Notes under the pieces: generated by a model | What the model saw: only the letters and a program-made list of their open reading frames with translations | What the model was told of the DNA's origin: nothing | Databases searched by the model: none | Shown here: positions 17,068 through 33,689 of the stretch, piece by piece | Numbering within the stretch: position 1 is the first letter of the stretch | Layout of the letters: each line of letters begins with the position of its first letter | IMG/VR virus record: IMGVR_UViG_3300023215_000703 | Span: 1-41,826 of that record | Origin: a virus | Reading direction: 5' to 3' (one strand) | Length of the DNA: 41,826 bases | Program-made: the position numbers and the translations under genes

Positions 17068-17628
17068 ATGCAACCAATAAAGCTACTTGCAAAGCTTACA
17101 ACTAAAACGCTAAATCTCACTGGTACGTTTGGTGGCAGTGGGCAAGACGTTATTGATTGGCGGACGGCGGCACATGCTTTGGCAGGTTTACCGCAGTGCC
17201 AAACCAATTGGGCTTACTTTCGCTATGTGGGTGAGGAGACAAGGCTTAATCGTGTTGTACGCTCGCTAACTATGCACGCAACGCTGTTTGTAAAAATACG
17301 CCAATACAAAATAAAGCCAGATACATTAAACGGCTTGGTGATGGCAGCAGTACATGAGTTTGTTCAGCCGGTGTGTGGTGAATGTGATGGTAGTGGTTTA
17401 GCACCGGGGCAAAAGGCCACTAACCTAGAAGCTGATACATGCGTTAAGTGTCACGGACGAGGACGCAAGCCAATATCAAACCGCAGTCGATGTAAAATTA
17501 TCGGTATCGGACATAAAAGCTATACCAGCGCACACGATGAAGTAACAAAGGAACTATTGCGCTTAATAGCTGAGTGGGAGCGCGATATATTCAAAAATAT
17601 ACACGTAAAAATGGGTGACGTAGCATGA
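17068..17628 (+). CDS. Q-like late antiterminator with zinc finger
   Basis: The 186-residue protein has a double CxxCxGxG zinc finger (C103, C106, C125, C128). It is flanked by helical parts with the WRTAAHALAGL and WAYFRYVG patterns found in phage Q/antiterminator proteins of the 82/21 type. It is the last regulatory gene before the late region. A promoter followed at once by two terminators lies at 20520-20644, which is what a Q protein needs. The zinc finger also resembles DnaJ, but the context favours Q. Confidence 0.75.
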   Translation: MQPIKLLAKLTTKTLNLTGTFGGSGQDVIDWRTAAHALAGLPQCQTNWAYFRYVGEETRLNRVVRSLTMHATLFVKIRQYKIKPDTLNGLVMAAVHEFVQPVCGECDGSGLAPGQKATNLEADTCVKCHGRGRKPISNRSRCKIIGIGHKSYTSAHDEVTKELLRLIAEWERDIFKNIHVKMGDVA

Positions 17629-18811: not shown

Positions 18812-18851
18812 GTATCCAATACTCATAGACAAGTACCTAACGGAACATTAA
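18768..18851 (+). CDS. possible small protein, 27 aa
   Basis: An AGAGGG site precedes ATG 18768, which opens a 27-codon frame (MLIKPNKILTAIMIKYPIL…). It overlaps the end of the previous gene in another frame and stops before the terminator. It may be real or chance. No family is recognised. Confidence 0.25.
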   Translation: MLIKPNKILTAIMIKYPILIDKYLTEH

Positions 18852-19109
18852 AGAACATAACGGAACAACACCGGAACAAAATAACGCTCTTAATCTAATT
18901 AAGGGCGTTTTTTATTGTCTAAAGCAAAGTTTTAGCGGAACAATGCGGAACAAATGGCGGAACAATTGAAAATGTAAGTTATTGATATTTAATTGATGTT
19001 CGCTTTAAACGGAACATTTGAGGGGGGATTATAACGATTTGTCCTGTTTATCGACTAAATGTTCCTTTTTATATTGCTTAACGTCACCTTATACTTTTAA
19101 ATAGGAACA
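18841..19109 (+). repeat. GGAACA repeat array
   Basis: GAAC cores occur at 18843, 18853, 18863, 18874, 18938, 18948, 18960, 19012 and 19105. Most are part of CGGAACA. Within clusters the pitch is 10-12 bases, one helical turn. Inverted GTTC copies are at 18998 and 19061. About one GAAC would be expected by chance in this length. The pattern suggests cooperative binding of a regulator on one DNA face. Confidence 0.75.
18883..18913 (+). terminator. terminator of the early rightward operon
   Basis: AACGCTCTTAAT and ATTAAGGGCGTT form a 12-bp stem with one G-U pair and a 3-base loop, followed by a run of T. It ends transcription after the 193-residue gene unless antiterminated. Confidence 0.9.
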
Positions 19110-21717: not shown

Positions 21718-21982
21718 ATCAACAGCAGCAGCAAGCTACACTGCAAGTATCGGCACTGGTGTCGGCGGTTTATTGTCACTTAACAACATGGCGCTAGCGC
21801 TTGGCATTTTATTTACTGTGATCACATTCCTGATGAACTGGCGCTATCAGAGCAAAAAGCACGAGCTTGAACTTCAAAAACGCCGTGAAGATGCTGAGTA
21901 CCACAAGGCACGTATGAGAGAACTGGTGCGTGACGATGAACAAGCATTAGCTGAGTGCAAGGTAAACAGCGGTGATAAGTAG
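21710..21982 (+). CDS. holin (HP1-like)
   Basis: The 90-residue protein has a Ser/Thr/Ala/Gly-rich first part (TAAASYTASIGTGVGGLLSL) that may be a weak membrane segment. A strong membrane helix (MALALGILFTVITFLMNW, about 24-42) and a charged Lys/Glu/Arg tail follow. This resembles HP1-type or pinholin-like holins, which time SAR endolysin release. ATG 21710 is preferred over an in-frame upstream ATG inside the Rz1 gene. The lysis genes run endolysin, spanins, holin, before the terminase. Confidence 0.75.
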   Translation: MDRSTAAASYTASIGTGVGGLLSLNNMALALGILFTVITFLMNWRYQSKKHELELQKRREDAEYHKARMRELVRDDEQALAECKVNSGDK

Positions 21983-22656
21983 TGTCAAAATGGAGCGATT
22001 TAAACGAGCTATTTCAAAAAGAGCATAGCGAAACAAGAATATCGCTGCGTGATTTTTGCGACAACAACAAATTAAACTACAGCACTGCGCGAAAGCATAT
22101 AAGAACATCAAGAGCAGCACCGCGTAAAGCAGTAAAGGATGAAGGCCAAAGGCTTACAAGAGCACCGAACTTTAAACACGGTGGTTATACAAAGTATTTT
22201 AAGCAAGGCGTTAATCAGTTAGTTGAAGCAACAACGCTAGAAGATGAGCTTGATTTATGTCGCGCTCGCATTCACATGGTTATGGACTCGATTGAGGGTA
22301 TCCAAAAGCTATTAGATGATGCGGACACGACAAACGAATCGAAAGTGATGCTTTACGAGTCGTTATTTAAAGCTGAAATGTCACTTGATAGAAATGTCAT
22401 ACGTGCTGAGTCGATAACTAAAACGCTATCAAGCCTTGAGACAGACACACTAGCACGCGGCAAGCTTATTGCGGAAACGACACGTATTAAGCAACAAACA
22501 CAAGCGCTGATCAACGCGACCAAACGCGGTAAGCATCAGGCGGAAATTGCAGAGCATGAAGCAGCCAAAGCACGTAAAGAGGCCGGCGGCACTAGTAAGC
22601 TTGATGATTTCATTGATAAGCGCACAGGCGGTTTAGATACGGTGGTTAGTCAGTAA
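21982..22656 (+). CDS. terminase small subunit
   Basis: The 224-residue protein starts with GTG overlapping the holin stop (TAGTG). It has an N-terminal helix-turn-helix-like part (ISLRDFCDNNKLNYSTARKHI, about 20-40) and a long helical body. A basic patch precedes the C-terminus. It lies directly before the large terminase gene, whose ATG overlaps its stop. It would recognise the packaging site, as small terminases do. The family is inferred from position and HTH. Confidence 0.75.
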   Translation: MSKWSDLNELFQKEHSETRISLRDFCDNNKLNYSTARKHIRTSRAAPRKAVKDEGQRLTRAPNFKHGGYTKYFKQGVNQLVEATTLEDELDLCRARIHMVMDSIEGIQKLLDDADTTNESKVMLYESLFKAEMSLDRNVIRAESITKTLSSLETDTLARGKLIAETTRIKQQTQALINATKRGKHQAEIAEHEAAKARKEAGGTSKLDDFIDKRTGGLDTVVSQ

Positions 22657-24389
22657 TGCAACCAAAGCCAGCTAAATACCCTAAGAGCACATGGCTCACA
22701 GAAGAAGAACGCTTTAATTTAGATGAAGTAGAGCTGTTAGAGCGATGCGAACCCTATCTTGATTGTTGGTGGTGGCGTTTAAACAACTTATACATCATAG
22801 CGGACGAGAAAGGCCGTGAAGTGTTGTTTCGTTGTCGTATAGCGCAAACCATGCTTTTTGTAACGATGTGGTTTTTAAACATCATCTTAAAAGCGCGCCA
22901 GCTTGGCTTTAGCACAGCAATACAAGTTTTTATCCTAGATCACGCCATGTTTAACGATAACAGGCAGTGTGGAGTAATCGCCCAGGGTAAAGAAGAAGCC
23001 AGCGCCATATTTTCATCTAAGATACTTTATCCCTACGAGCGGCTACCAAGTTGGCTTAAAACGGGCAAGCGCTCAGTTAAAAGCAAAACTGGCACCGGGA
23101 TAAAGTTTAATAATGACTCATGGATACGTGTTGCTGTTTCGTTCCGCTCGGGAACACTTCAAGTATTACACGTATCAGAATACGGCAAGATATGCGCTAA
23201 CTACCCATTACGAGCAGACGAGGTTCAATCGGGCTCACTGAATGCGGTACATGAAGGCTCTTATATTTTTATTGAGTCAACAGCAGAAGGCGCAAGCGGC
23301 AATTTCTTTGATATGTCAGTCGATGCGATGGATTTATCAGCATCAGGCATTGTGCTAGGCCAGCAAGATTTTAAATTTCACTTTTATCCATGGTTTGATG
23401 ATCCTAAGTATGTGGCACCAGTGCCGACAGGTGGCTTAAAACTTTCAAAGGAAAAGGCCAAATACTTCAAAGCAGTTGAAGCAGCTAACGGCGTAAAGCT
23501 CACAGACGAGCAAATAAGCTGGTACATAGGCAAGGAGCGCAACCAAAAAGGCAAGATGAAGCAGGAATATCCATCTACACCGATGGAGGCTTTTTTAACA
23601 TCAGGCCGCAAAGTATTTGATAGTGACGATTTAATGCGTGTCGAAGGGCGCTGCGTTAAGCCGTTACTCGTTTATGATCTTGAGCCATACACCGGCAACA
23701 TGAAGAAAATGAACGGCAAGGTTGATTTAAACGCCAAAGGTAGCGATAAGCTGGCCCAATCAACACTCGGCTACCTGCTGATATGGGAATTACCAGACGA
23801 AAACGAGGACTACGCAATAGGAAGTGACGTAGCAGAAGGACTTGAACACGGAGATAGAAGCTCATTAGACGTTGTTGCCAAATCGGATGGGCGACAGGTA
23901 GCACATTGGTTCGGTCATATAGACCCTAAGCGGTTTGCACACATAAACAAGCATATCGGACTTATGTATAACAAGGCCTATATTGGCGTTGAGCGAAACA
24001 ATCACGGTCATGCGACACTTCAAGAGCTTGTTGAGATTTACCCAACGAGCCGGATTTACACGGAAGAACACATTGATCGCGAAGATACGGACGAAGAAAC
24101 ACGCAAGGTAGGCTGGCACACAAGCGCACAGTCAAAACCAATTCTTACCAGTGGATTAGACGCACTGCTAACGAATGATGCTGACGGCATTGTTTGGCGC
24201 GGTACTTCTAGCGAGCTAAGCACATTTGTTTACGACAAAAAAGGCCGTATGGGCGCACAGCCTGGCGGGTTTGATGATCAGGTAATGAGTTACATGATTG
24301 CACAAGAAATGCGAGTAAGAATGCCTAAACGACTAATAAAAGATAATACACCCGCACCACACAACCCTAATCATTGGATGGCAAGATAA
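22656..24389 (+). CDS. terminase large subunit
   Basis: The 577-residue DNA-packaging motor has an ATPase domain with a Walker-A-like KARQLGFST (79-87), a Walker-B-like strand LQVLHVSEYG (168-177, E175), and FIESTAEG as the coupling motif. The C-terminal RNase-H-like nuclease has acidic residues D390 (GSDVAEG), E445 (GVERNNHG) and D539-D540 (GGFDDQ). It cuts and pumps DNA into the prohead through the portal. It starts in the stop of the small subunit gene, and the portal gene follows by 3 bases. Confidence 0.95.
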   Translation: MQPKPAKYPKSTWLTEEERFNLDEVELLERCEPYLDCWWWRLNNLYIIADEKGREVLFRCRIAQTMLFVTMWFLNIILKARQLGFSTAIQVFILDHAMFNDNRQCGVIAQGKEEASAIFSSKILYPYERLPSWLKTGKRSVKSKTGTGIKFNNDSWIRVAVSFRSGTLQVLHVSEYGKICANYPLRADEVQSGSLNAVHEGSYIFIESTAEGASGNFFDMSVDAMDLSASGIVLGQQDFKFHFYPWFDDPKYVAPVPTGGLKLSKEKAKYFKAVEAANGVKLTDEQISWYIGKERNQKGKMKQEYPSTPMEAFLTSGRKVFDSDDLMRVEGRCVKPLLVYDLEPYTGNMKKMNGKVDLNAKGSDKLAQSTLGYLLIWELPDENEDYAIGSDVAEGLEHGDRSSLDVVAKSDGRQVAHWFGHIDPKRFAHINKHIGLMYNKAYIGVERNNHGHATLQELVEIYPTSRIYTEEHIDREDTDEETRKVGWHTSAQSKPILTSGLDALLTNDADGIVWRGTSSELSTFVYDKKGRMGAQPGGFDDQVMSYMIAQEMRVRMPKRLIKDNTPAPHNPNHWMAR

Positions 24390-32488: not shown

Positions 32489-32997
32489 CAGAAAATTCAC
32501 ATATTAACGGCAAAGATTTTAATGGATTTGTAATACCGATAGGGCGCGCCGCAGGGGCTAGGCTAAATCAAATCGCTATGGATGGAGAGAATAAGCCGAC
32601 TTTATATACCCGAAATTATAATTCAGGAAGGCTTGAATACAAACACAGCGGCAACACTAATTTCACCACGTTAAAAGGTGAAAAAGCAGGAGACCAGTTT
32701 GGAGCTATTGTTTTTAGAAATACAAACTCAGTATTTTTGGTTAAAGACTTGTCAGGTTACACCTCTGCCCCCTCATCTATAACATGTACTGGCACATTTA
32801 AAATTACTAATCAAAGCGGAGTAGATAGGATAACTGGCATAACTGCATCAGATCTATTTTTAGATGTTCTGACTTCAAATAAAAGGTTAAAAGTAAAGGT
32901 CTTAAACATAGATCCAGCAGCACTAAGCTTTGGTGGTGATGACACTTACGAGCTGTGTGCTGAAACTGATGGTTCTAACATAGAGGTTAACCCATAA
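32489..32997 (+). pseudogene. displaced C-terminal part of the fibre-like gene
   Basis: In the -1 frame from 32482 the sequence reads LTENSHINGKDFNGFVIPIG and continues RAAGARLNQIAMDGENKPT, then a beta-rich region, to TAA 32997. An internal ATG at 32578 could start translation, giving 139 residues, but no good ribosome site precedes it. The hydrophilic beta-rich composition fits a fibre end. It overlaps the DUF4376 gene by one base. Confidence 0.6.
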
Positions 32998-33689
32998 TGT
33001 TAAAATTCATAAGCGACAACGATTTTTTGCTAGTCGATAAATATAAGCAAAACGATGATGGCTCAATTAGCTGGGTTTATAACGATGGCAATGCAACTCA
33101 CAGCGGCTTTATTCGTGAGGGCATGACTCGATCTATTCAAGTACCCGATGGCGCAGAGCAAGTGAAAGTAGGTGAAAAACTCGCTTTGGACAGCGAAGGC
33201 AATCAAAAGCTAGATGATGATGGACTGCCGTTATTCGAGCCCGCTTTTGAAGAACAGCAAAAATACAAAGATGAAATAGTCGATATATGGGCCAAGTTAA
33301 AAGAGCAGGTAGAGCAAGGCGCTATAACGATAGACTCGGATCATTTGCTTTTAGAGCAAAAGCAGAGCGCTAAAGATAGTATTAACGCCACTCGCGATGC
33401 GTTGAATGACGCAGATATTGAGTACAACGGTTATACATTCCAAGCGGGTGCGCAATCGCGTGAGGATATTATGGGCGCAGTGGTTACAGGTAGCGATACT
33501 ATTTGGCTTACGCGTGACAACCAAGAAATTGAAATGCTAGCCGAAGATATGCGCGGCCTTGGTCTAGCTATCGCCAACCGTAAAAAGTTTTTAGTGTATA
33601 AGGCCCGTCACTTTAAAGATGCGCTGGACGAGTTAAACGATGAAACCGAAATAAAAGATTTTATCAATAACTTAGATTGGAGCGCATAA
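32997..33689 (+). CDS. tail fibre assembly-like protein (DUF4376)
   Basis: The 230-residue protein has an N-terminal beta part (DGSISWVYNDG) and a C-terminal DUF4376-like helical domain: INATRDALNDADIEYNGYTF, QAGAQSREDIMGAV, LAIANRKKFLVYKA. Such proteins accompany tail fibre genes, often as chaperones or cap proteins. It starts in the stop of the fibre-like gene. Confidence 0.65.
   Translation: MLKFISDNDFLLVDKYKQNDDGSISWVYNDGNATHSGFIREGMTRSIQVPDGAEQVKVGEKLALDSEGNQKLDDDGLPLFEPAFEEQQKYKDEIVDIWAKLKEQVEQGAITIDSDHLLLEQKQSAKDSINATRDALNDADIEYNGYTFQAGAQSREDIMGAVVTGSDTIWLTRDNQEIEMLAEDMRGLGLAIANRKKFLVYKARHFKDALDELNDETEIKDFINNLDWSA

What the first reader, a model, noticed from the sequence alone, without database searches (positions are those of the whole stretch)
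18841..19109. Helically phased GGAACA array around a terminator and before the UmuD'-like gene
Nine direct GAAC cores, most in CGGAACA, lie within 270 bases where about one is expected. Clusters have 10, 10, 11 and 10, 12 base pitch, with two inverted copies near the next promoter. No ordinary feature explains this. It may be the binding platform of an unidentified regulator, perhaps governing the accessory cassette or linking to late control. It differs from the CI operator.
Basis: partly seen in the sequence, partly recalled or inferred. Interest (0 to 1): 0.7.

Follow-up and report, generated by a model that had tools for sequence, protein, structure and literature searches.

The report
Phage DNA-packaging start site, repeat array
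The repeated GGAACA words are most likely the address label that this marine prophage's packaging protein (small terminase) reads to load the right DNA into new virus heads; related viruses change the label and the reading part of the protein together, and a mobile island in a bacterial genome appears to carry a copy of the label.

Summary
In detail: nine direct GAAC cores (eight GGAACA) lie in 18842-19109, far above chance. They form a conserved ~230-bp non-coding cassette (18838-19069) in about a dozen related prophages, whose neighbouring genes differ. The array does not track CI, Cro, CII, O or the Q-like protein. It tracks one protein, the small terminase TerS (21982-22656), and specifically its N-terminal helix-turn-helix. 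TerS with a different HTH occurs with TGCGCA arrays (11 loci), and a third type with GACC/GGTC repeats (1 locus). Three TerS are hybrids by sequence (TGCGCA-type HTH, remainder nearer the GGAACA type); the two with the array region on the contig carry TGCGCA arrays. A perfect IHF-site match sits between the repeats. A 15.9-kb integrative island in another Pseudoalteromonas genome (integrase, AlpA, type I R-M, no terminase of this family) carries the core site with identical spacing. Best explanation: this is the packaging-initiation site (lambda cosB-like or pac), bound by the TerS HTH. Whether it is cos or pac, and binding itself, are untested. Known kind of element; new arrangement and motifs; useful for the open question of how TerS reads DNA.

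The parts
18842..18878 (+). Upstream repeat cluster: GGAACA 18842, GAACA 18853, GGAACA 18862, GGAACA 18873 (pitch 10, 10, 11)
   Evidence: copy number varies between relatives by 11-bp steps (L210, L211); absent from the island copy
18883..18913 (+). Rho-independent terminator between the clusters, probably ending the early operon
   Evidence: conserved in all aligned GGAACA relatives
18937..18964 (+). Core repeat cluster R-R-R: GGAACA 18937, 18947, 18959 (pitch 10, 12)
   Evidence: same offsets 0, 10, 22 in the G050 island
18975..18987 (-). Perfect IHF consensus match (minus strand TATCAATAACTTA)
   Evidence: conserved in all GGAACA-class loci examined, perfect also in L214, L263, L221; only 4 perfect matches in the whole window
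18996..19017 (.). Imperfect dyad ATGTTCGCTTTAAACGGAACAT; its right half is the fourth core repeat, GGAACA 19011, at +74 from the first core repeat
   Evidence: +74 offset kept in the island
19035..19053 (+). Conserved CGATTTGTCCTGTTTATCG next to the last core repeat; CGATTTGTCCT kept in the island; candidate cleavage region (inference only)
19060..19065 (-). Inverted GGAACA, right edge of the conserved cassette (degenerate in several relatives)
18838..19069 (+). Conserved non-coding cassette: proposed packaging-initiation site
   Evidence: alignments; downstream genes differ between relatives
21982..22656 (+). Small terminase subunit TerS (224 aa): predicted helices 3-18, 22-28, 33-39 (HTH), low-confidence linker 44-68, long helical core
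   Evidence: phrog_370 E 7.7e-35 and phrog_51; AlphaFold2 model mean pLDDT 73.8; covariation
22656..24389 (+). Large terminase subunit TerL
   Evidence: phrog_2 E 2.7e-29, phrog_24361; 53-55% identity to terminase large subunits of isolated phages

Best explanation
The array is the DNA-packaging initiation site of a lambdoid Pseudoalteromonas-type prophage. The N-terminal helix-turn-helix domains of the oligomeric small terminase (TerS, 21982-22656) bind the GGAACA repeats, one HTH per repeat; repeats 10-12 bp apart lie on about the same face of the helix. The host bending protein IHF, bound between the core repeats, would fold the site so that separated repeats meet one TerS assembly, much as at lambda cosB. 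TerL would then be placed to make the first cut nearby and pump the DNA. Shown here: the array and its conservation, the TerS and TerL assignment by family models, covariation of motif with the TerS HTH, conserved geometry in a terminase-free island, and an IHF consensus match. Inferred: binding, IHF action, the position of the cut, and whether ends are cohesive (cos) or headful (pac).
For: (1) Covariation: 12 GGAACA-HTH loci have GGAACA arrays, 11 TGCGCA-HTH loci have TGCGCA arrays, and the one third-type HTH has GACC/GGTC repeats, each 1.7-5.9 kb upstream of terS. No counter-example occurs where enough upstream sequence is held; the chance of such a partition under random labelling is 3e-8, ignoring shared ancestry. 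(2) The link is to the HTH: L185/G012, L196/G017 and L215 have N-termini 78-82% identical to the TGCGCA type (52-53% to the window) but C-parts 82-84% identical to the window; the two with the array region on the contig have TGCGCA arrays. (3) Linkage alone is a poor explanation: L011 shares 97-99% identical lysis proteins with the window yet has another array and TerS HTH; G017 has Q 94%, TerL 93%, portal 93% but TerS 70% and another array. (4) CI, Cro, CII, O and their operators differ among genomes with the same array. (5) A 15.9-kb island at tRNA-Arg (18-bp direct repeats) with int, AlpA and type I R-M has the site with offsets 0/10/22/74 and CGATTTGTCCT conserved; the geometry pattern hits 1 of 397 family genomes, without mismatch. 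(6) Perfect IHF match in every GGAACA array examined, in L214, L263 and the GACC array. (7) N-terminal HTH and helical core match known TerS anatomy (PMC9611059).
Against: No binding, cutting or virion-end data. The phage loci are related by descent, so the association is not 24 independent events. The site lies 1.7-5.9 kb from terS across the lysis genes, unlike lambda cosB (next to terS) or P22 pac (inside terS). IHF matches in several TGCGCA arrays are imperfect and one (L216) has none within one mismatch. Distant TGCGCA arrays are not helically phased. Intergenic GGAACA arrays also occur in many unrelated phages beside replication or terminase genes, where the binder is unknown. No such array was seen near terS of the more distant Aeromonas and Vibrio relatives. 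The island could in principle have borrowed a late-gene control site instead.
Confidence: 0.85

Rival explanations
1. Late-control site: the array lies between the early operon and the lysis genes, where lambda has PR', and is bound by the Q-like protein or another phage transcription factor to switch on late genes.
For: Position after Q and before the lysis genes in all relatives; the Q-like gene is always present; an early terminator lies inside.
Against: Q-like proteins do not separate by array class: G017 Q is 94% identical but has a TGCGCA array, G011 Q is 84% but has GGAACA. No convincing promoter in the cassette. The island copy has no late genes.
Confidence: 0.06
2. Operator of a regulator still to be found, phage- or host-encoded.
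For: Direct and inverted repeats of a 6-mer in a non-coding region; many unrelated phages have intergenic GGAACA arrays.
Against: No protein family is present in all 8 GGAACA genomes and absent from the 4 others. A host factor would not explain the switch to TGCGCA or GACC at the same place in step with the TerS HTH.
Confidence: 0.05
3. Replication origin iterons bound by the O-like initiator or a helicase-loading protein.
For: Phased direct repeats with an IHF site resemble iteron origins; in unrelated phages GGAACA arrays lie beside VapE-like or AAA_25 replication genes.
Against: The O-like gene is absent or unrelated in G004 and G010, which carry the same array; the array is 4-5 kb from the O-like gene; L157/G012 has an O 90% identical to the window but a TGCGCA array.
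Confidence: 0.04

Closest known systems
lambda-type cosB (lambda, 21, phi80, Gifsy-1; PMC4669245, PMC9026076)
   Same: Repeated R sequences read by the N-terminal HTH of TerS, an IHF site between R sequences, packaging specificity that follows the TerS DNA-binding domain (lambda/21 hybrid TerS), and use of related sites by chromosomal islands.
   Different: Here 7-9 short 6-bp repeats (up to 9 GGAACA in L210) at 10-12 bp instead of three 16-bp R sequences; 1.7-5.9 kb from terS across the lysis genes; a terminator inside; no cosN or cosQ identified; TerS sequence unrelated to lambda gpNu1 as far as searched.
pac sites of headful phages (SPP1/SF6, P22; PMC4737164, PMC9611059)
   Same: A TerS-recognised region with several contact points; ring-type TerS with HTHs proposed to read bent DNA.
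   Different: SF6/SPP1 HTHs bind weakly with little sequence specificity and P22 pac is one 22-bp site in the TerS gene; here a strongly conserved word is repeated and swapped with the HTH.
Phage satellites: enteric PICIs and marine PICMIs (PMC9026076, PMC10803314)
   Same: The island with the site has integrase, AlpA and defence genes, sits at a tRNA gene, and lacks terminase.
   Different: It keeps the repeats in phage geometry, whereas PICI-A has no recognisable R sequences and redirects TerS with Rpp; for PICMI115 no cos or pac site was identified; mobilisation of this island is not shown.

Membership tests
TerS recognition site (packaging-initiation site, general) | Motif specificity linked to the TerS DNA-binding domain | tested here: met
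   24 loci in three motif classes, incl. hybrid TerS
TerS recognition site (packaging-initiation site, general) | Direct binding of TerS to the site | not testable with these tools
   needs a binding assay
lambda-type cosB | Repeated TerS-binding R sequences | tested here: met
   repeats present and conserved; sequence and length differ from lambda R
lambda-type cosB | IHF site between R sequences | tested here: met
   perfect consensus at 18975-18987 in the window and GGAACA class; imperfect or missing in some TGCGCA arrays; binding not tested
lambda-type cosB | Located beside terS and a cosN nicking site | tested here: not met
   array is 3.1 kb upstream of terS across the lysis genes; no cosN recognised
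lambda-type cosB | Unique cohesive virion ends at the site | tested here: inconclusive
   two contigs of one strain end at window-equivalent 18805 and one at about 18768, just left of the array, but the other end of the long contig is 2.5 kb short; no virion reads
pac site (headful) | Circularly permuted virion DNA with packaging series starting at the site | not testable with these tools
   no sequencing reads available
CI/Cro operator | Same sites at the CI-Cro intergenic region; covaries with CI | tested here: not met
   operator regions differ and carry no GGAACA; same array with CI of 49-99% identity
Q-dependent late promoter region | Covaries with the Q protein; promoter present | tested here: not met
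Replication origin iterons of the O-like protein | Linked to or covarying with the initiator | tested here: not met

The most novel reading that the evidence does not exclude
Repeats spaced one helical turn apart are read at the same time by neighbouring HTHs of one TerS ring around which the site is wrapped with the help of IHF: a natural, sequence-specific 'nucleosome-type' terminase-DNA complex whose address word can be exchanged by swapping HTH and array together, and which satellites copy to be packaged.
Probability: 0.3. Interest if true: 0.8.

Novelty: new variant of a known kind. Interest (0 to 1): 0.62.

Why it matters
How small terminases find viral DNA is described as still unanswered (PMC9611059), and packaging sites are often not found even in well-studied systems (PMC10803314). 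Here comparison alone gives a site, its motif, its likely reader, two alternative motif-HTH pairs and hybrid TerS proteins, which is a ready set for binding and swap tests. The island copy suggests satellites in Pseudoalteromonas that carry restriction-modification genes and may travel in this phage family's particles.

Tried and rejected
CI, Cro, CII, O, Q-like and DksA-like proteins as binder: no covariation. CsrA-type RNA sponge (GGA motifs): dropped because the motif changes to TGCGCA or GACC at the same place. Immunity-specific or moron-specific promoter: array kept with other genes downstream. Plain pattern scan of viral contigs: mostly coding repeats, plus a separate set of unrelated intergenic arrays. 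Conserved-core scan: 16 true cassettes, four chance hits (L243, L245, L246, L253). Fixed-geometry scan of viral contigs: L269-L271 are unrelated tandem repeats. TGCGCA-core pattern in 108 genomes: prophages plus four chance coding hits, no TGCGCA island found. Pattern was mis-spaced (it misses the known island) and is uninformative. PDB sequence and fold searches with TerS and TerL gave nothing useful. Distant Aeromonas and Vibrio relatives: no array near terS.

Full report
Observation. Eight direct GGAACA plus one GAAC-only core lie in 18842-19109, with inverted copies at 18998 (GTTC) and 19060. In 60 third-order Markov copies of the window no 270-base stretch held more than three GGAACA; the window has eight. 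A terminator sits between the two clusters.

Setting. The window is a 41.8-kb virus record with the order integrase, early left genes, CI (S24), P22-type Cro, CP76-type CII, O-like replication protein, NinB, YbcO, resolvase, Q-like zinc-finger protein, array, S24/UmuD-like protein, lysozyme, Rz, TerS, TerL, portal, coat, tail. The nearest annotated phage DNA is Pseudoalteromonas, and the TerS family is found in 4 of 108 Pseudoalteromonas species genomes, so a Pseudoalteromonas-type host is likely (inference).

Conservation. Using the Q-like protein as anchor, relatives with up to wholly different genes on either side keep a cassette equivalent to 18838-19069: four repeats, terminator, three repeats, an AT-rich segment, a fourth core repeat and CGATTTGTCCTGTTTATCG. 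The gene after it may be S24, a lysozyme, or others, so the cassette does not belong to the S24 gene. The copy at 19104 lies outside it. L210 and L211 have extra upstream repeats added in exact 11-bp steps.

Which protein goes with it. Some relatives with the same Q-like protein lack GGAACA and instead have several TGCGCA at the same place; L011 has GACC/GGTC repeats around a terminator at the same place. A gene-by-gene identity table over 16 relatives shows that CI, Cro, CII, O and Q vary independently of the array class, while one gene, 21982-22656, splits cleanly: 83-96% in GGAACA genomes, 59-70% in the others. It is the small terminase (phrog_370, E 7.7e-35). The contrast is sharp in recombinants: L011 has lysis proteins 97-99% identical to the window but TerS 61%; G017 and G012 have TerL 93 and 90% and portal 93 and 91% but TerS 70 and 69%.

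Inside TerS the difference is in the N-terminal HTH and the linker. G012, G017 and L215 have N-termini 78-82% identical to the TGCGCA type and C-parts 82-84% identical to the window; G012 and G017 carry TGCGCA arrays, and L215's contig does not reach the expected array. More distant TerS (44-46%) with a similar HTH (NYS[ST]ARRYIK), L223, L226 and L228, also have five or six TGCGCA copies upstream, as do three prophages in species genomes. AlphaFold2 places helices 22-28 and 33-39 as the HTH, a disordered linker at 44-68, and a long helical core, the usual TerS layout (PMC9611059).

IHF. A perfect WATCAANNNNTTR match lies at 18975-18987 between the core repeats, in every GGAACA cassette examined, in L214 and L263 (TGCGCA) and in L221 (GACC). 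Other TGCGCA arrays have one-mismatch sites, which are common by chance (1.9 per kb), and L216 has none. Lambda cosB has the same kind of order, with IHF between R3 and R2 (PMC4669245, PMC9026076).

The island. A search of 108 Pseudoalteromonas species genomes with the cassette found one strong match (E 7.6e-8) in a genome without this TerS. It aligns without gaps over 130 bp (83 identical), with repeats at offsets 0, 10, 22 and 74 and CGATTTGTCCT kept, while the sequence between has diverged. The geometry pattern occurs in 1 of 397 family genomes, this one, with no mismatch. The host element runs between 18-bp repeats 15.9 kb apart, the first in a tRNA-Arg gene, and encodes an integrase, DUF6387, AlpA, unknown proteins, type I R-M genes and an AAA protein; no capsid or terminase family was found. 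This is what a phage satellite that borrows a packaging site would look like. Mobilisation is not shown.

Ends. Two assemblies of one strain end at the same base, equivalent to window 18805, and a third contig ends at about 18768. This fits a packaging start near the array but is weak: the two assemblies may share reads, and the long contig lacks 2.5 kb at its other end.

Mechanism. Most likely TerS oligomers dock HTHs on the repeats, helped by IHF bending, and position TerL to cut and start packaging. The conserved CGATTTGTCC beside the last repeat is a candidate for the cut or for another contact. Cos versus pac is open. A side role in late transcription is possible because the site lies where the late promoter is expected.

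Known versus new. That TerS specificity follows its N-terminal domain is established for lambda and phage 21 (PMC9026076). New here are the many short repeats at 10-12 bp, three interchangeable motif-HTH pairs in one family, the distance from terS, and the island copy. In the distant TGCGCA arrays the repeats are not helically phased, so phasing cannot be a general requirement.

Noticed in passing
L265 / L272 (G050:C1, about 291.8-307.7 kb), site at L265:9587-9718 (-): 15.9-kb integrative island at tRNA-Arg with integrase, DUF6387, AlpA, type I R-M and AAA protein that carries the core packaging site; likely phage satellite.
   Followed up: partly
L042, L049, L058, L069, L106, L111, L120, L123, L130, L136, L143 and others: Many unrelated phage contigs have intergenic GGAACA arrays (pitch mostly 8-12 bp, both orientations) beside VapE-like or AAA_25 replication genes or terminase genes; the binder is unknown and may differ from TerS.
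   Followed up: partly
L158:6220-6410, L151:2390-2550, L263 near 2620-2770: TGCGCA arrays in relatives share CGATTAAAT six bases after a TGCGCA copy, possibly the counterpart of CGATTTGTCC in the GGAACA class.
   Followed up: partly
window 33662-33674: The same 13-mer as the array's IHF site (TATCAATAACTTA) occurs once more, inside a coding region near the end of 32997-33689; probably chance.
   Followed up: no
window 17068-17628: Q-like protein with paired zinc-finger motifs, only weakly matched to antitermination protein Q (phrog_127), conserved in all relatives; late promoter not identified.
   Followed up: no
window 22656-24389: TerL and TerS belong to the group found in Sepvirinae podoviruses and many Vibrio phages; TerL has no Pfam match at E 1e-3.
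   Followed up: partly
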